Assembly (NCBI GenBank): GCA_019455065.1
Contig: JACFNC010000001.1
Span: 1 to 64,000, forward strand
Reading direction: 5' to 3'
DNA from: Rhodospirillales bacterium
Lineage (GTDB): Bacteria > Pseudomonadota > Alphaproteobacteria > Rhodospirillales > Magnetospirillaceae
DNA length: 64,000 bases
Shown: positions 1-35,206 of the stretch, piece after piece
Position numbering within the stretch: position 1 is the stretch's first letter
Layout: every line of letters starts with the position of its first letter
Program-made: the position numbers and the translations under genes
The notes under the pieces: model-generated
The model's input: only the letters and a program-made list of their open reading frames with translations
Database searches by the model: none
Told to the model about the DNA's origin: nothing

Positions 1-199
1 CATTGCGAAGTGGGGTAGCTTACGAAGCTATCCCGCTACCGGCGTTTGCGTAAGCCCCTCGCCCGGGTGCGGGATTGGGTGGGGCCAACGCGGGAGGCTT
101 GGGAGGGTGAGGGAGCGCCGCCGTCGCCGCGCCTTTCGCGCGGCGCCCTCACCCCGACCCTCTCCCGCAAGCGGGAGAGGGGGGAGCGAAGATAGGGAG
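1..199. other. Intergenic stretch with three hairpins
   Basis: No gene is seen here. It holds an imperfect inverted repeat (arms at 12-21 and 25-34, 3-nt loop), a GC hairpin (arms CGCCGCGC at 125-132 and GCGCGGCG at 138-145) and a REP-like palindrome listed separately. The stretch lies just beyond the 3' end of the truncated gcdH copy. It differs from the sequence beyond the 3' end of the intact gcdH at 3744-3934, apart from the shared REP-like palindrome, so the two gcdH ends sit in different contexts. Confidence 0.6.
158..181. repeat. REP-like intergenic palindrome, copy 1
   Basis: A perfect inverted repeat with arms CCCTCTCCCGC and GCGGGAGAGGG around an AA loop, preceded by CACCCCGA. A near-identical copy lies at 3775-3798. 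Palindromes of this form are common between genes in alphaproteobacteria. It could act as a bidirectional transcription stop, although no T-run follows. Confidence 0.75.
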
Positions 200-944
<745 letters not shown>

Positions 945-1089: not shown

Positions 1090-1419
1090 ATGGCTTTTGG
1101 TTTTTCTGCTACGGCGAGCAAGCATGCTAGGCTGCGAAGCCAACAACGGGGCATCACCAACGAGGTCGTTAATTTGGTCCTGGATCACTTCGACACCGTG
1201 CTTCACGCAGGTGATGGCTGTCAGACGGTCAGATTGTCACGTAGGGGATTGGCCGAACTGAGGAATACCGGCACTGATCGGCAGGTAATCGAGCGCGCGG
1301 CCCGGATTGTTGTTGTTATGCGGGAGGACAACTGGCGCATCGTGACGGTGATGCACGACACGGGTGCCGAACGCCATTATCGCCGCCAGGGTGAAACGAG
1401 GAAGAGGAACGTACAATGA
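1090..1419 (+). CDS. DUF4258-like small protein, first gene of cassette A
   Basis: This 109-residue protein resembles the DUF4258 family: near the N-terminus it reads KHARLRSQQRGIT, the family's H..R...RGI signature, and near the C-terminus IVTVMHD...RHYRR, a final strand followed by basic residues. DUF4258 proteins have been linked to the RelE/BrnT-like toxin fold, but their activity is mostly unknown. Start ATG at 1090 follows a GGGGGCAGG-like ribosome site. Its stop overlaps the next start (ATGA at 1416-1419), so the two are translationally coupled. GC content is visibly lower than in the flanking metabolic genes. It could be a toxin, a nuclease partner or an accessory of the cassette. The family call is moderately sure and the role unknown. 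Confidence 0.7.
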   Translation: MAFGFSATASKHARLRSQQRGITNEVVNLVLDHFDTVLHAGDGCQTVRLSRRGLAELRNTGTDRQVIERAARIVVVMREDNWRIVTVMHDTGAERHYRRQGETRKRNVQ

Positions 1420-2888
1420 GCGGGAAGGTCATCGCGTTCCCCAATCGCCCTCGGCACGAAACTAGCCAGGTAAACAAGACCCGCCCATTAAGCGAACGAG
1501 CCGCCGCGATACGACAGGCCGCCAAAAACAAGCGGATGTTAACCCGAGCCACCGAGCGGGGGATCGTCGCGAGGAACTTATACCGCATCTTGCTAGATTT
1601 TGAACGCGACAGCGGCATTTCCAGGGTGGAGGTACTGCGCGCTGTGGGGCTCGGCAATCCAGAAGTCGAATCGACCAAACGTTTGCACTACTACACCCTT
1701 CCTGGTGAGTTGGAGGAGGGGGGCAGAAAGCGGCGCGAAAAAAAACTGGCGAAAAGCGCCGCCCGCTACATTCGATTTGTAGACGCTGCTGCGAAGCTGG
1801 CAAAGGTGTCAGCGGATGAAAAACTCGTTGAGTTGTTCGCGGGCACCTCTTATGACGCTGGCACCCGCGAATTAGAATATCCTGCAGCCGTCTATGACCT
1901 CATCGACAAGTTGAACTCGATGGTGCGGTGGGTAGTCGCCGAAGCCAAGCTGGAGCATTACTGGCGCGAGGTGAGGGCCACGCGCGGCGCTTACGACGTC
2001 TATGAGGAAGCTATCCGGATTTCGGGCCGGAGGCTATCGACAATGGGTGACTTTTCGGGCGGCTCAATAGAGCATATCGACGACATCCCGCCGATTCCGG
2101 AGGTTTCGCTTTTCGAATACCGAGAGCCGGGCACGCTCTCAGCCCGTCTGAAGACTCAAGACGAGGCTGGGGCATGGCATGATCGGGGGGAAGCCAAGAT
2201 AGAGGTGTTCCGCGAGGTCCGGCTGGCGGTGGCGGAGGTCGGAAGTGTTCCCAGGGGAGTGTTCGCGGTCTATACCCGGATTGTGGCTACCGTGGGTAGC
2301 CTAGTACTCAATGCCATGCACACAGACGGGACCTTTACGGTGAGCCGCCCGCATTTCCCGAAGGACGCGCGTGGGCGTCGATGGGTTCCGGTGCTTAGTG
2401 CCGACGGTTCTGTTGAAGGATACTCGCCAGTTTGCGTTGAGGAGAAAGGGCGCTGGGTCGCGGCCGAATTAGACCACGGTCCTAACAATAATTGCCCTAT
2501 ACCAAGTCGCGCACCCGCGCCTTATGACGGCTTCATTGGCCCCGGAGAACCGTGGTGGGTGATTCTCGTACCTATCGTTGATACGGCCGTATTTGGATAC
2601 TGCTCGATGTGCGCGGGAAACGATGAGCCGCGAGGGCCATTATTTCATATGCCCCGCGAGTTCAGTTCCACTCCATGGCCTATTGGCTCTCTAGGCGAGG
2701 CGATCGAAGCGAACTTACTCTACGCTGATCAAGGACGTCTAGACGACTTGCTGCTCGCCGACGCTAGAGCAAAGGTTGAAATTCTCGCGCGCTACCGGGC
2801 AGCCGCAGCCGAGAAGCGGTCATCTGCTGAAGTCGCCGTGTACAAGAAATGGAAAAACAAGGGGAATGAGAATGAGTTATCAGATTGA
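1416..2888 (+). CDS. Unknown 490-aa protein, core of cassette A
   Basis: I do not recognise this protein. It starts with a basic N-terminus (about residues 1-60), followed by a helical segment near 50-75 (LYRILLDFERDSGISRVEVL) that could be a helix-turn-helix. A charged, mostly helical middle follows. A beta-rich C-terminal half, about 270-430, contains DGTFTVSRPHF, ELDHGPNNNCPI and GYCSMCAG. No signal peptide, membrane segment, Walker motif or known nuclease motif is evident. It overlaps the DUF4258-like gene by 4 bp (ATGA) and the GIY-YIG gene by 23 bp, so the three are probably one transcript and act together. Base composition differs from its neighbours. A sensor or regulator role is possible but not shown. 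Confidence 0.8.
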   Translation: MSGKVIAFPNRPRHETSQVNKTRPLSERAAAIRQAAKNKRMLTRATERGIVARNLYRILLDFERDSGISRVEVLRAVGLGNPEVESTKRLHYYTLPGELEEGGRKRREKKLAKSAARYIRFVDAAAKLAKVSADEKLVELFAGTSYDAGTRELEYPAAVYDLIDKLNSMVRWVVAEAKLEHYWREVRATRGAYDVYEEAIRISGRRLSTMGDFSGGSIEHIDDIPPIPEVSLFEYREPGTLSARLKTQDEAGAWHDRGEAKIEVFREVRLAVAEVGSVPRGVFAVYTRIVATVGSLVLNAMHTDGTFTVSRPHFPKDARGRRWVPVLSADGSVEGYSPVCVEEKGRWVAAELDHGPNNNCPIPSRAPAPYDGFIGPGEPWWVILVPIVDTAVFGYCSMCAGNDEPRGPLFHMPREFSSTPWPIGSLGEAIEANLLYADQGRLDDLLLADARAKVEILARYRAAAAEKRSSAEVAVYKKWKNKGNENELSD

Positions 2889-3735
2889 TATCTCTGCTAG
2901 AAATGATTTTCAAGTAGTCGAAGATGCGGGTCGCATTTCCGCCGTTATCGACAGCACCGCCTCGCAGTTTTACGTTTACCTCTTGCTCAGGCCAAACCGA
3001 GAACCGTTTTACGTGGGTAAGGGCACTAATAAGCGGTTGTTTCAACATGAAGCCGAAGCTAGGAACACGACTAGGCGGACGCACAAGTTAAATGTCATCA
3101 GGTCAATCCAACAATCTGGCCAACGTATCGGCTATGGCATTGCCTGCTTTTTCGATAGCGAGGTCGATGCGCATCAATGTGAAAGGCGGTTGATTCAGGT
3201 GATTGGTCGGCACGATTTGGGCACAGGGCCGCTGACCAATCAGACTGACGGAGGGGAAGGTACATCCAACCCATCAGACGAGAGCCGTGCGCGGCGCGCC
3301 GCTACTCTGGGCGGCGCGGCTGAGGATCCGGAGAGACGCGCTGCGAACGAGTTCTTCCATCGTATCGCCAGGCAGCAGGACTCCGTCCCCATAAAACCAC
3401 TTGGTTCCCGGCGCCTGGAACGTACGACGCCCCATTCGAGCCCGCGGCAGCCGACGCAACGCATGGCGGTGACCCTGGTCGCTGCCGCTCTGGTCGGAGA
3501 CGTGCCTATGGCTGCGGGCATCGCCGTCCCGCGCGTGTTTGCGATCGATGGACGACAGTACGCGATCGAAAATGGAGTGGCGAAAGATATGTTAAAGGCT
3601 GGCATGATCGAGATTACTGCTTCAGCACTCCCGGAGGACGAGCGCTTTGTAATAACGGACCGCGGCTTCAAGGCGGTAATAGCGCTAATCGGGCGGGACA
3701 GGTTGTTAGACTTGGGAGTGCTTGATCCCGCTTAA
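2866..3735 (+). CDS. GIY-YIG domain endonuclease, last gene of cassette A
   Basis: This 289-residue protein has an N-terminal GIY-YIG fold, LEM-3-like in type: YVY at about 36-38, YVG at 49-51, a likely catalytic Arg near 57 (KRLFQHE), a possible metal-binding Glu near 106 (QCERRLI), and LTNQTDGGEGT near 123-133. The fold makes metal-dependent cuts in DNA. The C-terminal 150 residues are unassigned; the last about 70 (AIDGRQYAIENG... to RFVITDRGFK) may be a winged-helix-like or target-recognition domain. The ATG at 2866 is chosen because an AAGGGG site lies just before it; ATG 2872 is an alternative. The gene overlaps the 490-aa gene by 23 bp. The likely role is effector nuclease of the cassette (inference). 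Confidence 0.85.
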   Translation: MRMSYQIDISARNDFQVVEDAGRISAVIDSTASQFYVYLLLRPNREPFYVGKGTNKRLFQHEAEARNTTRRTHKLNVIRSIQQSGQRIGYGIACFFDSEVDAHQCERRLIQVIGRHDLGTGPLTNQTDGGEGTSNPSDESRARRAATLGGAAEDPERRAANEFFHRIARQQDSVPIKPLGSRRLERTTPHSSPRQPTQRMAVTLVAAALVGDVPMAAGIAVPRVFAIDGRQYAIENGVAKDMLKAGMIEITASALPEDERFVITDRGFKAVIALIGRDRLLDLGVLDPA

Positions 3736-3774
3736 GGATCACATTCCTGCTTTAGTGCTTTGCACCCACCCCGA

Positions 3775-3798
3775 CCCTCTCTCGCAGGCGGGAGAGGG
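3775..3798. repeat. REP-like intergenic palindrome, copy 2
   Basis: Arms CCCTCTCTCGC and GCGGGAGAGGG, one mismatch from perfect, preceded by CACCCCGA exactly as in copy 1 at 158-181. It lies between the end of cassette A and the 3' end of gcdH. Confidence 0.7.
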
Positions 3799-3898: not shown

Positions 3899-3934
3899 GA
3901 CGTGGAAAGGCGAAGGCACTCTGGGGTGCCGCCG

Positions 3935-5121
<1,187 letters not shown>

Positions 5122-27354: not shown

Positions 27355-28782
27355 TCAATCGCCGTCGTTCTCGACCCGAGCCACACGCAGGATGTTCGTG
27401 GTCCCGGACGTTCCGAACGGCACGCCCGCGGTGATCACGATGCGTTCCCCAGGCTGGGCGAAGCCCTCCTCGCGCGCCTTCGTCAGGGCGACGCTGACCA
27501 TTTCGCTGAAGCTCTGGACATCGCCCGCCAACGAGCTGTGGGCGCCCCATACCAGCGACAGCCGGCGGGCCACCGCCATGTCGGCGGTCAGGCTGACGAT
27601 CGGCACCTCGGGGCGCTCGCGGGCGGCCCGCAGGGTGGTCGAGCCTGACGAGGTGAAGGTGACGATGGCCGCAACCTCCAGGGTATGGGCGACCTGTCGG
27701 GCGGCGGCGCTGATGGCGTCCCGGGTGGTGCGTTCGGGCTCTACGCGGGCCGCCTCCACCATCAGCCGGTACTGTTCGTCATGCTCCACGCGATCGATGA
27801 TGCGGTCCATCATGGTCACCGCGTCCACCGGGTACTCTCCCACCGCGGTCTCGGCCGAGAGCATGACGGCGTCGGCACCGTCGTAGATGGCGGTGGCGAC
27901 GTCCGAGGCTTCGGCGCGGGTCGGCGCCGGAGCATGGATCATCGAATCGAGCATCTGCGTCGCCACAACGACCGGCTTTCCGGCGCGGCTGCATGCCCGC
28001 AGGATGCGCTTCTGAAGGATGGGAACCGTTTCGGGCGGGCATTCCACCCCAAGGTCACCGCGCGCCACCATGACCGCGTCGGACAACTCGATGATGTGCT
28101 CGAGGTAATCGATCGCCGACGGCTTCTCGAGTTTCGACAGGATGCCGGCCCGGCCGGCCACCAGGCGGCGGGCATCGGCCACGTCCTCGGGCCGCTGCAC
28201 GAAGGACAGGGCGATCCAGTCGACGCCCATGTCGAGTCCGAATTGCAGATCCGCATGATCCTTCTCGGTCAGCGCCGAGATCGGAAGTACCACGTTGGGG
28301 ACGTTCACGCCCTTGTGGTTCGACAGTTCGCCGCCGGTGATCACCCGCGTATCGGCGAAGTCGCCGCTGTGGCGTTCGACCCTCAGCCGGATGCGCCCGT
28401 CGTCTAGCAGAAGCTCGGTGCCGACGGACAGCGCGGCGAAAATCTCGGGGTGCGGAAGGGGAGCCCGGCGTTCATCGCCAAGCTCGTTCGACAGATCGAG
28501 GCGAAATTCGGCCCCCGGGTGAAGCTGCGCCTTGCCGTCGCGAAAATTCCCCACCCGCAACTTGGGCCCCTGGAGATCGAACAGTACACCAATGGGCCGG
28601 CGCAGCTTCCTTTCGATTGCGCGAATGGCAAAGATGCGCTCGCGGTGTTCGTCATGGGTGCCGTGACTGGCGTTGAGGCGAAAGACGTCCGCTCCGGCCA
28701 CGAACAGGCTTTCTATGGCCTGCGGGGACGCCGTGGCGGGACCAAGGGTGGCAATGATCTTGGCGTTCCGTGTTCTTCTCAT
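27355..28782 (-). CDS. pyk: Pyruvate kinase
   Basis: A 475-residue pyruvate kinase: the N-terminal KIIATLGPA strand, FDLQGPKLRVG, the B-domain, and the signature AVMVARGDLGVECP (about 240-253), followed by the C-terminal regulatory domain with SSGSTTLRAARERPEVPIVSLT. It converts phosphoenolpyruvate and ADP to pyruvate and ATP. Length is normal. Upstream on the minus strand, before the insertion, lay the MFS transporter gene now split off by the Gabija segment. Confidence 0.96.
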   Translation of the reverse strand: MRRTRNAKIIATLGPATASPQAIESLFVAGADVFRLNASHGTHDEHRERIFAIRAIERKLRRPIGVLFDLQGPKLRVGNFRDGKAQLHPGAEFRLDLSNELGDERRAPLPHPEIFAALSVGTELLLDDGRIRLRVERHSGDFADTRVITGGELSNHKGVNVPNVVLPISALTEKDHADLQFGLDMGVDWIALSFVQRPEDVADARRLVAGRAGILSKLEKPSAIDYLEHIIELSDAVMVARGDLGVECPPETVPILQKRILRACSRAGKPVVVATQMLDSMIHAPAPTRAEASDVATAIYDGADAVMLSAETAVGEYPVDAVTMMDRIIDRVEHDEQYRLMVEAARVEPERTTRDAISAAARQVAHTLEVAAIVTFTSSGSTTLRAARERPEVPIVSLTADMAVARRLSLVWGAHSSLAGDVQSFSEMVSVALTKAREEGFAQPGERIVITAGVPFGTSGTTNILRVARVENDGD

Positions 28783-28953: not shown

Positions 28954-29125
28954 TGCCGCGGGCAAGGAATATCCGTGCGCCGTCAGCGCTGCGGGCGACA
29001 GTATGTTTCACGGACCATCGTGGCCGACAGCAGCCCCACCAGCAAACAGGCCGGCAGGACGATCAGCGCGGCAGCATAGGCATCGGTGGAATAGGCCCTC
29101 GCCCCGTTCTCCATCGCCCCGTCCC
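28954..29125. repeat. Direct repeat B, left copy (MFS gene 3' end)
   Basis: Matches 33029-33200 at a constant offset of 4075. From 28971 on only two mismatches were seen (28987 and 29121); the first 17 bp are more diverged. Identity ends sharply at 29125. The pair brackets the gajAB segment, in the same way as repeat A brackets cassette A. Confidence 0.93.
28983..29125 (-). pseudogene. Truncated 3' end of the MFS transporter gene
   Basis: About the last 47 codons of the MFS gene at 33058-34323 with its stop codon (ending ATMVRETYCRP plus one or two residues), cut off at 29125. It cannot be expressed as a useful protein. It marks the left border of the inserted Gabija segment and shows that the original neighbour of pyk was this MFS gene. 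Confidence 0.9.
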
Positions 29126-29273
29126 TTAACGGCGGGTCAGGCGGCCATGATCACATAAATTCATCCTCCTTTCTGGGAGCCCCCTGAGGGCGGGCCCTAC
29201 TACCAATATTGTTATTGTGCGGCAGGCGGTTAAACTTTCTATCACGCTAAACTCCTACCACCGAGGAAGAGGA

Positions 29274-31091
29274 ATGTATATTAATCGCATTCTCATCCGG
29301 AATTTTCGGTCGTTCGAGATTCTCGACCTTCCGCTCGGCCCAGGCACGACCTGCGTCATTGGGGAAAATAATACCGGTAAGTCCAATCTCCTTCACGCCA
29401 TCCGGCTCTGCATCGACTCCACGCTTTCCTCCGCTTATCGATCCCTCGCCCCCAACGACATCCACTCGACGGTGGATATCTCGCACCCCAACCAGGTGCT
29501 TGTCGCCCTTGAGATCACTGATTTCCAGGGAAAAATCAACGAGGAAGCCCTTGTCGGAGCGTGGCAATTCAAGCCAGGCAAAGCGCGCCTGATTTACCGC
29601 TACCGCCCGAAACTGAGCGCCCGCGAGGATTTGGAAACCGGCGACCTAAAGGCCGGCGAGCTGACGAGAGAAGATTACCACTGGGAGATCACTGCCGGCG
29701 GCGATCCGGCTCTCGATCCTGCCGAGATCGAGTGGGACGAAGACGTGGGATCGTCCATCCGGTTCGGCGATCTCCAGTCCTTTCTGGTCGTTTTCCTGCC
29801 TGCGCTTCGCGATGTGGAGAGCGACCTGCGGCAGTTTCGCACTTCCCCGCTGGCCCGTCTCATTGATGCCATGGAGATCGATCTCTCCGAACAGGAGTTG
29901 TTGCTTGATGCCCTCCGCAAGGCCAATGCCGAAATCGCCGCAGCCCCGACGATCAGCAAGATTGCCGACGTCATCGATGCCTCGTTTAAGAAAGTCACTG
30001 GTCCCGCCTTCAGCATGGACGTAGGACTTGGCCTCGCCGAGCCGTCGTTCCAGGCAATTATCCGGGCTCTTCGCATACTGCTCTCGAATGCGGCCATGGA
30101 GAATTTCGACCCGACATCCAATGGCCTGGGGCTGAATAATATTTTGTACGTTTCGATCCTGATCGAGTACTTCCACAAGAGGCTTGCTCAGCAAAAATCG
30201 GCGGGACAAATCATTCTGTTTGAAGAGCCGGAGGCCCATCTGCACCCGCAGCTTCAGCTCACCCTTTTCAAGGCGCTTCAGGAACTGCCCTTCCAGTCGA
30301 TCCTTACCACCCACAGCACTCACATCACCGCCAATGCCGCTCTCAGCTCCTATGTGGCACTTACACAGACCGGCGCGCCCGCAGTCGCGTCCGCCGTGCC
30401 TGCGCATACGGCAGACCTGGACGAGGGGGAAATCCAGGATTTGGAGCGATATCTCGACGCCACGCGCTCAAACCTGCTTTTTGCCCGCAAGGTCATGCTT
30501 GTCGAAGGCCCGGCTGAACTTTTTCTGATCCCGGCGCTGCTCAAACAGGTGAATGGGATCGACCTGGAGCGAGAGGGCGTCTCCGTCATCCCCATCTACG
30601 GGGTCCACTTCGACGTGTACGCCAAGCTCTTCTCGGAAGATGCCCTGCCCAAGAAATGCGCCATCGTATCGGACGGCGACCTGAAGCCAAGCGACGCCGA
30701 TCCTGACCTTGATGGTGAGGACGATATTCCTCCGCCGCCAAACCTTAGCGACCTGGAAAGCGATTATGTTCAGGTGTTCGCCTGCAAGACGACCTTTGAG
30801 AGGGCCGTCACTATCGAGGGAACGCTGCAAATGCTCGCCAGAGCCGCGGACGATATCGGCGCTCCCATCGTCGCCGGCAAGCTTCGCGAAGGCGCTGAAG
30901 CCCTGGACGATGATAGCCTCGACAGCGCGGCGCGCGCCGCCATTCTGAATCCCCTGCGCAAGTCAGTTCTCAATACCGCGAAGCGGTTTGGCAAGGCACG
31001 CTTCGCACAAATCGCCGCCCGCCACGTAGATCAGGCAACCGATGTTCCCAAGTACCTTACCAATGCGGCCGAGTGGCTGATCGAAAAATGA
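29274..31091 (+). CDS. gajA: Gabija GajA: OLD-family ATPase-TOPRIM nuclease
   Basis: A 605-residue protein with an N-terminal ABC-type ATPase (MYINRILIRNFRSF; Walker A GENNTGKS at 30-37; Walker B region LFEEPEAHLHPQ near 313; TTHSTHI). The C-terminal TOPRIM domain shows MLVEGPAE near 409 and the acidic motif VSDGD near 465. This is the class 2 OLD architecture known as GajA, a nucleotide-sensing DNA nuclease that cuts invading DNA. ATG 29274 is preferred because GAGGAAGAGG lies just before it; an upstream GTG at 29217 is weaker. Its stop overlaps gajB (ATGA at 31088-31091). Confidence 0.93.
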   Translation: MYINRILIRNFRSFEILDLPLGPGTTCVIGENNTGKSNLLHAIRLCIDSTLSSAYRSLAPNDIHSTVDISHPNQVLVALEITDFQGKINEEALVGAWQFKPGKARLIYRYRPKLSAREDLETGDLKAGELTREDYHWEITAGGDPALDPAEIEWDEDVGSSIRFGDLQSFLVVFLPALRDVESDLRQFRTSPLARLIDAMEIDLSEQELLLDALRKANAEIAAAPTISKIADVIDASFKKVTGPAFSMDVGLGLAEPSFQAIIRALRILLSNAAMENFDPTSNGLGLNNILYVSILIEYFHKRLAQQKSAGQIILFEEPEAHLHPQLQLTLFKALQELPFQSILTTHSTHITANAALSSYVALTQTGAPAVASAVPAHTADLDEGEIQDLERYLDATRSNLLFARKVMLVEGPAELFLIPALLKQVNGIDLEREGVSVIPIYGVHFDVYAKLFSEDALPKKCAIVSDGDLKPSDADPDLDGEDDIPPPPNLSDLESDYVQVFACKTTFERAVTIEGTLQMLARAADDIGAPIVAGKLREGAEALDDDSLDSAARAAILNPLRKSVLNTAKRFGKARFAQIAARHVDQATDVPKYLTNAAEWLIEK

Positions 31092-32860
31092 AGCTCACCA
31101 CCGAACAGCGGGAAGCGATCCGCTGCAATGAAGACCTGATACTGACGGCGTGTCCGGGCAGCGGCAAGACGCGCGTCATCATCTCGAAATTGCTGCGTGT
31201 CATCGATGAGGTGCGGGACACGCCCCGCGCCGTTGCCTGCATTACTTACACCAACACAGCGGTTCATGAGATCGAAGGGCGGCTGCGCCATCATATCCAG
31301 CCCGGAGACGACGCCTACTACGACATCTGTACAATCCACTCTTTCTGCCTCAATCACATTTTCCGGCCGTTCTGTCATCTGATTAAGGGCTTCAAGCGAG
31401 GCTTCAAGGTTTTAACGCCCGAATGTCCTGAATTCGAAGAGCACGTGACGGCTGTCTGTAAGAGGCATGGCCGCCACGACCTAAACTATAGGGATTTTGA
31501 GGAGTTCACCCAGCTTCGGGTGAGCCTGGATGGCAACCCTGTTGGCGCGGGGATCGATCGCGGCGCTCTGAAACCGGAGGTGGCGAGGGAGTACTGGAAG
31601 CAAATCCGGGAGGCGGGTTTCATCGATTTTGCCAACATTATTTATTATTCTTTCTTGCTCCTGAAAAAACGCCCCGAAATCCTTAGCTATATATCCTCCA
31701 AGTTTGCGTGGATACTCGTGGACGAATTCCAGGATACGACCGACCTTCAGGTCGAAATACTTACGTTGATTGCGAAGGCAGGGCATACCAAATTCCTTCT
31801 CGTCGGCGACCCTTTCCAATCCATCTTTCGCTTTGCAGGCGCGCGGCCTGACCTTGCCGATGCATTTGCCGGCCGGATAGGAGCCCGCTGCGACATGCAG
31901 CTCTCCGGCAACTTCAGGTCAAGCAAGCCGATCGTGGCCCATGCCAACCTGCTGTTGCCCCGCAATCCTCCGATGGTGGCTGTCGGACGCGCAAAGTGCT
32001 ACACGGAGGTGCCAGCATGGCGGCACGGGACTTCGGCATTTCAGGTGATGACCGACGAGTTCCTGCCTGCCCTGGAAGGGCTGGGTATACCGATTGGCGA
32101 AGCCGCAATTCTAGCGCCGACGTGGGACTCCCTGTTTCCGCTGGGCCGCCGGCTGCGCGAGTACGGTGTAAGCATCGTTGGGCCAGGTGCGCGTCCATAC
32201 CGCAAAGCCAGGCAGTTTTCCCAGCTTGCCGAGCATCTGTGCGGTTTTTTGATGGAGCCTCGGCCGGACGCCATCGGGAGTATCGAACGCGCCCTGTTCA
32301 ATTCGCTGCTCGATGTGACAGGCAGGGCGCATTTCGACATTTTCTCCTACGCTGGCCGCACCGCCGTCTATCGGCTGCTCGCTGTTGCAAAAGAACTGTA
32401 TAAGGCGCACTTCGGGGCGATTTCCTGGCTTGAGCAGGCATCGAGGGCGGTCTCGCAGGTCTTGATCGAGGAAGGCTATATCAGTCCGGCGGAGCAGGAC
32501 ATTTTTCCGCTCTCCGTCGAGGAAATGAAAGCCGACATGCGCAATAACAATGTCGATTTAGCCAATCTCACAATCGACGAATTGGGGATCTATGCTTCTC
32601 CGGACTCGGCGCTCAAGCTCGCCACGCTGCACAATGCCAAGGGCCGTGAGTATGAGGCCGTCGCCCTGATCGATCTTCACGACAATCGTATCCCTCACTA
32701 TTACGCCCGCACCGCGGAAGACGTCGAGGAGGCCAAAAGGCTATTCTACGTGGGCATCACGCGAGCAAAACGATTCCTGATGTACGTCACCGACGACTCC
32801 AAACGCCGCAACGGCCCGTCCAGGTTCCTGCGCAAGGAGAACGGCATTGGCGTTTGCTGA
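31088..32860 (+). CDS. gajB: Gabija GajB: UvrD-like helicase
   Basis: A 590-residue superfamily 1A helicase. Motif I is TACPGSGKTRV (20-30), motif II ILVDEFQDTTD (about 207-217), motif III LLVGDPFQSIFRFAGA, motif V-like LHNAKGREYEAVALI and motif VI LFYVGITRAKRFLMY. In Gabija, GajB partners GajA in sensing or processing phage DNA. It is longer than the best-known GajB (about 494). ATG 31088 overlaps the gajA stop; a GTG at 31073 is possible. No other defence gene is in the segment. Confidence 0.92.
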   Translation: MKLTTEQREAIRCNEDLILTACPGSGKTRVIISKLLRVIDEVRDTPRAVACITYTNTAVHEIEGRLRHHIQPGDDAYYDICTIHSFCLNHIFRPFCHLIKGFKRGFKVLTPECPEFEEHVTAVCKRHGRHDLNYRDFEEFTQLRVSLDGNPVGAGIDRGALKPEVAREYWKQIREAGFIDFANIIYYSFLLLKKRPEILSYISSKFAWILVDEFQDTTDLQVEILTLIAKAGHTKFLLVGDPFQSIFRFAGARPDLADAFAGRIGARCDMQLSGNFRSSKPIVAHANLLLPRNPPMVAVGRAKCYTEVPAWRHGTSAFQVMTDEFLPALEGLGIPIGEAAILAPTWDSLFPLGRRLREYGVSIVGPGARPYRKARQFSQLAEHLCGFLMEPRPDAIGSIERALFNSLLDVTGRAHFDIFSYAGRTAVYRLLAVAKELYKAHFGAISWLEQASRAVSQVLIEEGYISPAEQDIFPLSVEEMKADMRNNNVDLANLTIDELGIYASPDSALKLATLHNAKGREYEAVALIDLHDNRIPHYYARTAEDVEEAKRLFYVGITRAKRFLMYVTDDSKRRNGPSRFLRKENGIGVC

Positions 32861-33057
32861 GCAATCGTCCGCAGGCACCGCAGCGCAGGCTTCACGGAGC
32901 GGTCTGCGTCTCGAAAACCTTGCCAAGCTCTGCCGCGGGATGCGCCTCAAGCACATCGGCACCCGACCCTAGCGCCGTGTTGGCGATGCCTTCGGAGCGG
33001 GCTTGTCGAAGGACGCTGACCAACCCGCTGCCGCAGACGAGGAACATCCGTGCGCCG
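32861..33057. other. Spacer between gajB and the MFS gene
   Basis: No supported gene. Beyond the short shared part (33029 onward) it differs from the sequence beyond the left MFS fragment (28783-28953). In a single-crossover model it is donor DNA from downstream of the donor's MFS gene. A minus-strand frame at 32892-33086 is open but overlaps the MFS end and has no family resemblance. Confidence 0.4.
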
Positions 33058-33200
33058 TCAGTGCTGCGGGCGACAGTATGTTTCACGGACCATCGTGGCC
33101 GACAGCAGCCCCACCAGCAAACAGGCCGGCAGGACGATCAGCGCGGCAGCATAGGCATCGGTGGAATAGGCCCTCGCCCCGTTCTCCATCGCCCCATCCC
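33029..33200. repeat. Direct repeat B, right copy (MFS gene 3' end)
   Basis: Partner of 28954-29125, here within and just beyond the 3' end of the complete MFS gene. Confidence 0.93.
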
Positions 33201-34323
33201 AGCGACGGTCGAGCACCCAGCCGATGAGCGGTTGGAAGATGGCCCCCGTCGACATGACGGTCATGTTGACGACGCCCAGCGTCGCCCCGCTTGCCCAGGC
33301 GGGATTGTGTTCGCGGGCCGTGGCGAAGCACAGCACCATCCCGCCCGAGAACAGGCCGGTGGCGAAGAGCAGGACGTGGACCACCGGCAACGAGAGCCCC
33401 GGCAGGTAAAGCAAGGCGACCATGAGGACGAGCGCTGTCGTTGAATTGACCAGCATCGGCAGCCGTCGGCGGCCGATATGGTCGGTGAACCATCCGGCGA
33501 CCGGTGCGCCCAAGGCCCACCCCACCATCATCGTCGACATGGACAAGGCGGCGGCAGGGCGCTCGAGTCCGTATCTCGCCATCATGTAGGGAACTCCCCA
33601 CAAGCCGCCGAAGGACAGCATGGGGGCGGTCAGCATGGCGCCATAGATGCCCACGAACCAGGTTTGCGGGTTGGCCAGCACGGCGCGCAGCCCCGCCAGC
33701 AGGCCCCGTCCGGCCTCGGCCGGTCGTGCCTCAGGCTGACGGCCACCCTCGCGGCGGTCCCGTACGAGAAGCCAGATCGCGGCGGCAAGAACCAGAGCGG
33801 CCGCGGCCGCGGCCCACATGGTGCCCCGCCAGCCTATGGCGCTGACGGCCGCGGCCAGAGGGGCTTGGCCGCCGATGGCGCCGGCCATTCCCATCGCCAG
33901 CGTCAGGCCGGAGAGCATCGCGAAACGTTTGGGAGGAAACCAGGCGGCGACCAGGTTGAGGGTCCCGACCCAGGTGACCGCCGCCCCGGCGCCGATCAAT
34001 AATCGTCCGAGATAGGCCGGCCACAGCCCAGGGGCCGTCGCGAACAGGGCGCTCCCGAGGGCGGCCAGGGCGGCGGCGACGGCGAGCAACCGACGCGACC
34101 CCCAGCGGTCGAGAAGCAGCCCGACCGGAACCTGAAGACCGGCGTAGGTATAGAAATACAGCGCCGACAGCATCCCGGTGATCGTCGCCCCGACGGCGAA
34201 GTCGCGCATCAAATCGGCGACCATCACGCTGGGCGCGACGCGCTGGAAGAATCCGTAGCAATAGAATGCCGCGCCCAGCCCCCACATCACCCACGGCAGC
34301 AGCGGGTGCCGCTCGTCTCTCAT
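33058..34323 (-). CDS. MFS transporter (intact copy)
   Basis: A 421-residue major facilitator with about 12 hydrophobic segments, a GLLLDRWGSRRL loop 2-3 motif (about 68-79) and GWFTDHIGRRRLP in the second half. Its start overlaps the stop of the GntR regulator by 4 bp (ATGA on the minus strand), so regulator and transporter are coupled. It may import an organic acid such as lactate, glycolate or an aromatic acid, but the substrate cannot be read from the sequence. Its 3' end is duplicated at 28954-29125 on the far side of gajAB. Confidence 0.85.
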   Translation of the reverse strand: MRDERHPLLPWVMWGLGAAFYCYGFFQRVAPSVMVADLMRDFAVGATITGMLSALYFYTYAGLQVPVGLLLDRWGSRRLLAVAAALAALGSALFATAPGLWPAYLGRLLIGAGAAVTWVGTLNLVAAWFPPKRFAMLSGLTLAMGMAGAIGGQAPLAAAVSAIGWRGTMWAAAAAALVLAAAIWLLVRDRREGGRQPEARPAEAGRGLLAGLRAVLANPQTWFVGIYGAMLTAPMLSFGGLWGVPYMMARYGLERPAAALSMSTMMVGWALGAPVAGWFTDHIGRRRLPMLVNSTTALVLMVALLYLPGLSLPVVHVLLFATGLFSGGMVLCFATAREHNPAWASGATLGVVNMTVMSTGAIFQPLIGWVLDRRWDGAMENGARAYSTDAYAAALIVLPACLLVGLLSATMVRETYCRPQH

Positions 34324-35060
34324 CCCGGCGTGGGGGAACGGCGTCGCCGCTCGGCGTCGTAATGGCCTGCCACCCATCCGAGGTGATCATGCATGGCGGC
34401 CGCCGCCCGGTCCGGATCGCCGTCCCGGATGGCCGCGAAAATAGCCTGGTGGTGACCGAGGAGGGTGCGGTCCTCCTCCGCGGTCGCGAACAACTCGTAA
34501 CGGTGGTATTCGAGCATCTGCCGGAGGATGTCGCGAATGACGCTCACGATATGCATGTAGACTGCGCTGCCCGAGGCCTTGGCCACCGCGAGATGAAAGG
34601 CCACGTCATCCTCGGCCTTGTGCCGTCCGCGAAGGCAATCCTTCTCCATCGCCGCCACGATCCCGGCCATCTCGGCAAGATGCGCGGCCGAGGCGTTGGA
34701 GGCGGCGCGGCGGGCCGCCCAGACCTCCAGGCTGGCGCGGATTTCGGCCAGGTCGTGGAGGTTGTCGTGATTGAGTCGGACGAGTTGGGCAAGGCCCGGA
34801 TCCATGATGGCGGCCGAGGAAATCACGCGCGTGCCGCCACCCTGCACGGCGGCCAGAAATCCCTGGGTCTTGAGCCGCTGCAGCGCCGCGCGGACGGACA
34901 CCCGGCTGACCCCCATGTCCTCGGCGAGTTGTCGCTCCCCCGGCAGCCTTTGTCCTGGAGCAAGCTGTCCCGAGGCGATCAGGGCAAGAACCTGCTCCGC
35001 CACTCGGTCGGAAACACGCTCGCTATGTGTGTTGGGGAGCGGAGCAAGGGTCACAGTCAT
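34320..35060 (-). CDS. GntR/FadR-subfamily transcriptional regulator
   Basis: A 246-residue protein with an N-terminal winged helix-turn-helix (about 14-80: RVSDRVAEQVLALIASGQLA, PGERQLAEDMGVSRVSVRAAL) and a C-terminal FCD ligand domain (LAEIRASLEVWAARRAA; HLAVAKASGSAVYMHIV; HHQAIFAAIRDGD). These regulators usually bind small organic acids and control the genes next to them. Here the target is presumably the coupled MFS transporter, perhaps also pyk or glcDEF. ATG 35060 gives a typical length; longer frames lack support. Confidence 0.88.
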   Translation of the reverse strand: MTVTLAPLPNTHSERVSDRVAEQVLALIASGQLAPGQRLPGERQLAEDMGVSRVSVRAALQRLKTQGFLAAVQGGGTRVISSAAIMDPGLAQLVRLNHDNLHDLAEIRASLEVWAARRAASNASAAHLAEMAGIVAAMEKDCLRGRHKAEDDVAFHLAVAKASGSAVYMHIVSVIRDILRQMLEYHRYELFATAEEDRTLLGHHQAIFAAIRDGDPDRAAAAMHDHLGWVAGHYDAERRRRSPTPG

Positions 35061-35206
35061 GGGCGCCTCGTTCCTTCCAGGGGACGAAGTGGACATACCA
35101 TTTCCCTGGTCGCCTGTAAACGCGCCTCGGCTCGCCTTCAACGGCGCCTTACGTCCTTGGCTTGGGCGTGAACCGATTGCTACCATAAGGGGTTAGCAGG
35201 GTGAAC

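What the first reader, a model, noticed from the sequence alone, without database searches (positions are those of the whole stretch)
28954..33200. 172-bp direct repeat of the MFS gene 3' end brackets the Gabija system
A fragment of the MFS gene's last 47 codons sits beside pyk, and the complete gene lies beyond gajAB. Only two mismatches were seen over the inner 155 bp. The sequence downstream of the two stops differs. The insertion kept the target gene intact and left a displaced 3' end, the same outcome as at gcdH.
Basis: seen in the sequence. Interest (0 to 1): 0.72.

Follow-up and report, generated by a model that had tools for sequence, protein, structure and literature searches.

The report
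Gabija defence genes inserted beside transporter
A two-gene anti-phage defence system sits between two metabolic genes, with a copy of one gene's tail left on the far side and no recognised recombinase of its own; two other gene modules in the sampled part of the same genome sit the same way, so defence genes may be moving by the host's own DNA recombination.

Summary
28954-29125 and 33029-33200 are a 172-bp direct repeat (96.5%, 6 mismatches) made of the last 47 codons of an MFS gene plus 29 bp past its stop; between them the only recognised genes are gajAB (Gabija). Three relatives of the same family carry mfs and pyk side by side with no gajAB and no fragment, the predicted empty site; none of the 60 relatives drawn was of the same genus.

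The structure recurs. In the 42.5% of the genome I scanned there are three such inserts: Gabija at mfs, IetAS at sdhB (491-bp repeat) and a DUF4258/unknown/GIY-YIG module at an acyl-CoA dehydrogenase (746 bp). None has a recognised recombinase; each target gene is intact and convergent with the module; each repeat begins 3-29 bp past the target's stop and ends abruptly inside the gene. I saw none in 800 kb from two relatives.

Best reading: one-crossover homologous integration of a circle carrying the module and the donor's gene tail. This resembles the 'insertion with long target duplication' described for restriction-modification genes, here with non-RM defence systems. Mechanism inferred, donor unknown, reads not seen. 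Twelve other GajA loci and two IetS loci show no such repeat: not a general property of Gabija or IetAS.

The parts
28954..29125 (-). left repeat copy: displaced last 47 codons, stop and 29 bp of the MFS gene, beside pyk
29126..29273 (.). left inner end of the insert (upstream of gajA); no terminal inverted repeat found with the right inner end
   Evidence: best complementary match 7 nt, ungapped
29274..31091 (+). gajA, 605 aa, AAA ATPase + OLD-like TOPRIM
   Evidence: PADLOC PDLC00092 GajA 1.3e-288; Pfam AAA_15, OLD-like_TOPRIM
31088..32860 (+). gajB, 590 aa, UvrD-like helicase, start overlaps end of gajA
   Evidence: PADLOC PDLC00130 GajB 5.4e-279; Pfam UvrD-helicase
32861..33028 (.). right inner end of the insert; 168 bp with no convincing homologue
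33029..33200 (-). right repeat copy: 3' end of the intact MFS gene
33058..34323 (-). intact MFS transporter gene, 421 aa (target gene)
   Evidence: Pfam MFS_1 4e-38; nearly full-length relatives 57-59%
27355..28782 (-). pyk, pyruvate kinase: native neighbour of the MFS gene
   Evidence: NCBIfam PRK06247 9e-214; adjacency in relatives
34320..35186 (-). GntR/FCD regulator next to the MFS gene, also next to it in five of eight relatives
   Evidence: Pfam FCD, GntR
199..944 (-). second case: displaced 3' end of the acyl-CoA dehydrogenase ('gcdH')
1090..3735 (+). second case: module of DUF4258 protein (1090-1419), unknown 490-aa protein (1416-2888), GIY-YIG protein (2872-3735, start chosen by me)
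3934..4679 (-). second case: 3' part of the intact acyl-CoA dehydrogenase 3937-5121

Best explanation
The Gabija genes are a 4,075-bp horizontally acquired insert without a recognised recombinase of its own, placed between mfs and pyk. Shown: an insert relative to the gene order of family relatives, a long duplication of the MFS 3' end, an intact target gene, lower GC, and the same anatomy at two other loci of the genome. Inferred: the incoming DNA was a circular molecule (or behaved as one) carrying gajAB plus the 3' end of a donor's MFS gene; one crossover between that tail and the resident gene by the host's homologous recombination inserted the whole circle, giving the direct repeat and restoring the target. 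Later or simultaneous gene conversion made the middle of the two copies identical and left differences at the edges. The reverse crossover between the copies would excise the insert precisely as a circle bearing one copy, which could integrate again at the same gene elsewhere.
For: Repeat and mismatch map. Empty gene order in G010, G001, G023, one MFS 3' end each. No recombinase recognised among the insert's genes and no terminal inverted repeat found. Two sister cases: acyl-CoA dehydrogenase 746 bp and sdhB/IetAS 491 bp. A second near-identical tail is found in the own genome only: of 26 genomes searched with the dehydrogenase tail 18 match at E 1e-30, of 26 with the SdhB tail all match at E 1e-5, and the other genomes' second matches are 26-35% identical or, in G013, a second long copy at 78% on another contig. 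Repeats start 3, 29 and 5 bp past the stop: under random placement of the duplicated segment Fisher p = 0.0009, which fits a shared gene tail and not a random duplicated target. Longest mismatch-free runs are long for randomly placed differences at the dehydrogenase (688 of 746, p = 5e-5) and MFS (133 of 172, p = 0.0006), not at sdhB (p = 0.11). Five of 7 coding differences are synonymous, all 4 at the dehydrogenase, as expected of a functional donor gene. Insert GC 0.561-0.578 against 0.66-0.69 for the target genes.
Against: No donor, circular form or empty sister strain was found; searches of viral contigs for close relatives of GajA and of the unknown protein and for an exact piece of the repeat were negative. 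Twelve GajA loci from other genomes (50-82% identity) show no target duplication; the one flanking repeat there, L046, looks REP-like by eye. Two IetS loci elsewhere also lack one, and 367 kb more of the own genome gave no fourth case. The dehydrogenase insert holds a GIY-YIG protein and an unknown protein whose part in movement is not excluded. Edge statistics rest on three cases and were chosen after seeing them; repeat ends found by extension are biased towards mismatches; with the inner 155 bp of MFS only two differences remain; three of the four dehydrogenase differences lie in adjacent codons and may be one event. A 46-bp identical stretch at the inner edge of the 746-bp repeat is not what simple edge divergence predicts. 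Reads were not available.
Confidence: 0.55

Rival explanations
1. Site-specific integration into the gene's 3' end by a recombinase or nuclease supplied in trans (or, at the dehydrogenase, by the insert's own GIY-YIG or unknown protein); the element carries a replacement gene tail, as e14 and phage 21 do at icd (recalled, not looked up).
For: Repeats begin at the stop codon and restore the gene. Integrase-bearing elements do exist in this genome.
Against: No integrase recognised in the three inserts. No shared exact word longer than 7 nt at the three inner edges or insert left ends; looser motifs were not tested. Three unrelated targets; repeats of up to 746 bp. The two integrase elements seen have 85- and 99-bp repeats and an integrase close to one end.
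Confidence: 0.15
2. Insertion with long target duplication in the simple sense: a wide staggered break at a random site, insertion of the module and fill-in, as one could picture for RM genes.
For: Same outcome as described for RM systems: long, variable duplications of the order of 100 bp (passage in PMC3874152 section 7).
Against: Duplication starts just past the target's stop in all three cases (p = 0.0009) and differences are not spread evenly in two of three.
Confidence: 0.13
3. Homology-facilitated illegitimate recombination of linear DNA: crossover in the gene tail on one side, end joining inside the gene on the other.
For: Known route for one-sided homology; proposed for Vibrio cholerae effector genes (passages in PMC9711863). 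One repeat edge is abrupt, the other graded at MFS.
Against: Predicts that the left copy is wholly native, so no differences near the inner edge; all three have one or more within 51 bp of it.
Confidence: 0.1
4. Assembly artefact from mixed strains, joining alleles with and without the module.
For: Genome in 40 contigs, 96% complete, 2.5% contamination; differences lie near junctions; contig C8 starts 198 bp before one repeat.
Against: Same anatomy at three loci on two contigs with unrelated modules; 4 of 4 differences synonymous at the dehydrogenase, unlike errors; gajAB and ietAS match their families over nearly full length.
Confidence: 0.06

Closest known systems
Insertion with long target duplication of restriction-modification genes (Nobusato 2000; Furuta 2010; neither was read, known here through passages of PMC3874152, PMC1643837, PMC3031569 and PMC4978471)
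   Same: A selfish or defence module sits between long, variable direct repeats of the target, not linked to a known mobile element; direct repeats are expected to allow tandem amplification (PMC3031569 passage).
   Different: The cargo here is Gabija, IetAS and an unnamed GIY-YIG module, not RM; duplications reach 746 bp; one edge coincides with the target gene's stop; target genes stay intact. Whether published RM cases share these edge features I could not check.
Gabija (GajA + GajB)
   Same: Both proteins match the PADLOC families over nearly full length; two overlapping genes on one strand.
   Different: The system itself is ordinary; the unusual part is how it sits in the chromosome.
IetAS (sister insert at sdhB)
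   Same: IetA and IetS PADLOC families over nearly full length.
   Different: Same insertion anatomy as the Gabija case.
Integrase-bearing islands in gene 3' ends (e14 at icd, tRNA islands; recalled)
   Same: Gene tail duplicated, target restored.
   Different: No integrase recognised, no common core found; longer repeats than the two integrase elements seen here.
Campbell-type cointegrates of circular DNA (PMC545071, abstract read)
   Same: A circle sharing a homologous segment inserts whole and leaves that segment as a direct repeat (the second half is general knowledge).
   Different: Laboratory system in E. coli with RecA and Red.

Membership tests
Gabija | GajA with ABC-type ATPase and TOPRIM domain | tested here: met
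   PDLC00092 1.3e-288 over 1-604; OLD-like_TOPRIM 2.8e-17
Gabija | adjacent UvrD-like helicase GajB | tested here: met
   PDLC00130 5.4e-279 over 1-588
Gabija | protects against phage | not testable with these tools
   needs expression and plaque assays
Insertion with long target duplication | insert relative to an empty site | tested here: met
   mfs-pyk adjacent without gajAB in G010, G001, G023; family level only
Insertion with long target duplication | direct repeat of the order of 100 bp or more of target sequence at both ends | tested here: met
   172 bp; sister cases 491 and 746 bp
Insertion with long target duplication | cargo is a restriction-modification system (as in the published cases seen in passages) | tested here: not met
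   cargo is gajAB
Integrase-bearing genomic island | integrase gene in the element | tested here: not met
   gajA and gajB are the only recognised genes between the repeats
Transposon or IS-flanked element | transposase or terminal inverted repeats | tested here: not met
   no transposase match; best inverted match of inner ends 7 nt
Homology-driven (single-crossover) integration | circular intermediate, RecA dependence | not testable with these tools
   needs cells or reads

The most novel reading that the evidence does not exclude
Small defence modules that carry no recombinase can act as homology-borne mobile cassettes: a captured tail of a conserved core gene serves as the integration arm, keeps the host gene intact, and lets the module leave as a circle and re-enter other strains at the same gene by the host's recombination. 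This genome carries at least three.
Probability: 0.3. Interest if true: 0.75.

Novelty: new variant of a known kind. Interest (0 to 1): 0.52.

Why it matters
Defence systems come and go quickly between strains; in E. coli this is put down to prophages, ICEs and transposons (abstract of PMC10121019). A recombinase-free route, with a simple sequence signature, would explain lone defence operons outside islands and gives a way to find new ones: the third module here, with an unknown 490-aa protein, stands beside two known systems only by that signature. Long direct repeats also predict precise, reversible loss, which is easy to test.

Tried and rejected
Gene transfer agent: the three units are 3.7, 4.1 and 4.4 kb, close to the fragment size I recall for such particles, but the one marker family tried, GTA_TIM, has no match in this 96%-complete genome; dropped.

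Origin of the 168-bp right inner end: a 65-aa reading frame has only weak matches in 149 genomes (13 with E up to 0.1, own included; best outside hit E 0.007; the most suggestive, E 0.013 in its genome, resembles by eye an RNA-binding protein tail, 44% over 45 aa), no NCBIfam hit. Treated as unknown.

Gabija in general moving this way: not supported. Twelve GajA loci from other genomes were scanned; L046 has a 61-bp flanking repeat that is palindromic and REP-like by eye. Flanks were shorter than 2 kb on one side for L036, L042, L044 and L045 (in L045 the gajA start was estimated). IetS relatives in G382 and G181 had no repeat. Class samples of 385 genomes held 3 genomes each with GajA or IetS at E 1e-60, own genome included; G460's partial GajA was not followed.

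Viral or plasmid form: no close GajA or unknown-protein relative and no exact 34-base repeat piece in viral contigs; IetS at 38-39% in 2 loci. Plasmids hold GajA, all below 60%, in 185 records and IetS in 12, and nothing for the unknown protein; plasmid loci were not fetched.

Shared core at the three sites: none found beyond 7-nt exact words. Out-of-sample test: 367 kb more of the own genome (C4, C5, C7) gave no fourth case.

First sdhB and dehydrogenase searches used strict E limits that could have hidden short fragments; they were repeated with the tails alone and looser limits.

Full report
What is there. The direct repeat is real: 28954-29125 and 33029-33200, 172 bp, 96.5% identical, 4,075 bp apart. 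The right copy is the 3' end of an intact MFS gene (33058-34323, minus strand, 421 aa): 46.7 codons before the stop, the stop, and 29 bp beyond. The left copy is a fragment beside pyk (27355-28782, pyruvate kinase). Between the copies are gajA and gajB, overlapping, on the plus strand; both match PADLOC Gabija families over nearly their full length. No transposase or integrase was recognised and no terminal inverted repeat was found. The insert has 57.8% GC against 68.6% in the target gene.

It is an insertion. Of the relatives searched (60 besides the own genome, none of the same genus), eight had an MFS protein aligned over nearly its whole length at 47-59% identity, and a ninth (G049) two pieces on separate contigs. 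In three of the eight (G010, G001, G023, same family) the order is regulator, MFS, pyk with only a short gap, no gajA or gajB hit and one MFS 3' end; in a fourth (G039, same order) one further gene lies between MFS and pyk; for the other four pyk was not within the 1.5 kb examined.

It is not alone. I scanned contigs C8, C24, C25, C17, C4, C5, C3 and C6 whole, 140,000 of 140,687 bases of C7, and the first 20 kb of C1, C2 and C9: by my sum 1,683,512 of 3,959,733 bases (only repeats above 80-85% identity and 35-60 bp were printed, the limits differing between calls). The sdhB insert carries IetA and IetS (PADLOC 1.9e-153 and 2.9e-300). The dehydrogenase insert carries a DUF4258 protein (just over the Pfam cut-off), an unknown 490-aa protein without Pfam, NCBIfam or PADLOC match, and a GIY-YIG protein with a weak PD-T4-3 match. 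GIY-YIG nucleases occur in homing elements (general knowledge), so a part of that protein in movement is not excluded. Other repeats in the scan are of different kinds: two that bracket tyrosine integrases (99 bp on C25, 85 bp on C24), tandem or near-tandem repeats, and weaker or distant pairs that were not followed.

The displaced tails are peculiar to this genome. Searched with the tail alone, 18 of 26 genomes match the dehydrogenase (E 1e-30) and 26 of 26 SdhB (E 1e-5); a second near-identical tail appears in the own genome only. Second matches elsewhere are 26-35% identical, so paralogues, or (G013) a second long copy at 78% on another contig. Next to sdhB the gene beyond the displaced tail is also near sdhB in two (G015, G009) of 11 relatives compared, and the ietAS module has no match in those 11 stretches. 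The dehydrogenase could not be checked that way, because the contig ends 198 bp beyond the tail.

Control. The first 400 kb of each of two complete same-family genomes gave no case that I recognised: in G027 a transposase pair, a pair I read by eye as tuf, a distant pair and an 88-bp pair at 11.7 kb that was not followed; in G018, where 12,806 bases read N, only diverged (below 90%) or short repeats.

Regularities. In all three the module runs towards the target gene's 3' end. Each repeat begins just past the target's stop (3 bp at the dehydrogenase, 29 at MFS, 5 at sdhB) and ends inside the gene at unrelated points. If the duplicated segment were placed at random but had to include the stop, the joint chance is about 0.0009; three cases, chosen after the fact. 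Differences between copies: four at the dehydrogenase (all synonymous), six at MFS (four noncoding, one synonymous, one that changes the last residue), one at sdhB (changes a residue). They leave long clean middles at the first two (p = 5e-5 and 0.0006) but not significantly at sdhB (p = 0.11). All 11 lie within 51 bp of an edge, which says little for the short MFS repeat, and every case has one or more within 51 bp of the inner edge. Three of the four dehydrogenase differences lie in adjacent codons and may be one event.

How it most likely works. The tail of the target gene is the long stretch shared by insert and chromosome, and it lies once at each end. A circle that holds the module and one tail, crossing over once with the resident gene, gives exactly this product. 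It restores the gene, explains why the repeat stops where coding sequence stops (donor and recipient share the gene but not what follows it), and makes the left copy's inner edge and the right copy's outer edge donor-derived, so that differences are expected at both edges; conversion between the copies cleans the middle. Shown: the anatomy, the empty order, the recurrence. Inferred: the circle, the crossover, the conversion, the mobility. Poteete and colleagues report for a laboratory system that circular DNA gives mostly cointegrates and depends on RecA and, less, on Red (abstract of PMC545071).

Rivals. A recombinase in trans cannot be excluded, but no shared core was found and the targets are unrelated. 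A random wide staggered break does not explain the edges. One-sided homology with end joining predicts a wholly native left copy and no inner-edge differences. An assembly artefact at three loci is unlikely but reads were not available.

Known and new. Insertion with long target duplication has been described for restriction-modification genes since 2000; I read passages about it in PMC3874152, PMC1643837, PMC3031569 and PMC4978471, not the primary papers (PMC2853133 is not held; Nobusato 2000 not looked up). My searches for the same with other defence systems showed no title or abstract start that describes it; the lists were partly capped (15 of 17, 20 of 46, 15 of 28, 12 of 4,006 and 15 of 36), few of the papers were opened, and only the open library is covered. 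The Gabija system itself is ordinary. What seems new is the combination: non-RM defence modules, three in one genome, no recognised recombinase, target tails cut at the stop. Against a general rule: 12 GajA loci and two IetS loci elsewhere lack it, as does a further 367 kb of this genome.

Noticed in passing
window 1090-3735: Module at the acyl-CoA dehydrogenase: DUF4258 protein, 490-aa protein with no family match and no relative at E 1e-15 in 384 other class genomes or in plasmids, and a GIY-YIG protein; a candidate new defence or selfish module.
   Followed up: partly
L105 13386-18578 (genome contig C25 213386-218578): IetAS inserted at sdhB with a 491-bp duplication of the sdhB 3' end, same anatomy as the Gabija case.
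   Followed up: yes
C25 74261-82782 and C24 82027-87125: Two integrase-bearing elements bracketed by 99-bp and 85-bp direct repeats, probably ordinary islands, that serve as a contrast.
   Followed up: partly
L046 9667-9727 and 13636-13695: gajAB of a Thiohalocapsa genome lies between two copies of a repeat that looks palindromic and REP-like.
   Followed up: partly
L157 1-1095: A 534-bp near-tandem repeat (93%) lies just upstream of a gajA (1814-3616) near a contig start in genome G364.
   Followed up: no
window 32861-33028: The 168 bp between gajB and the right repeat hold most of a 65-aa frame, running into the repeat, with faint likeness to an RNA-binding protein tail; possibly donor DNA.
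   Followed up: partly
window 150-181 and 3767-3798: A 32-bp G+C-rich repeat, palindromic by eye, lies both beyond the displaced dehydrogenase tail and inside the insert next to the intact gene.
   Followed up: no
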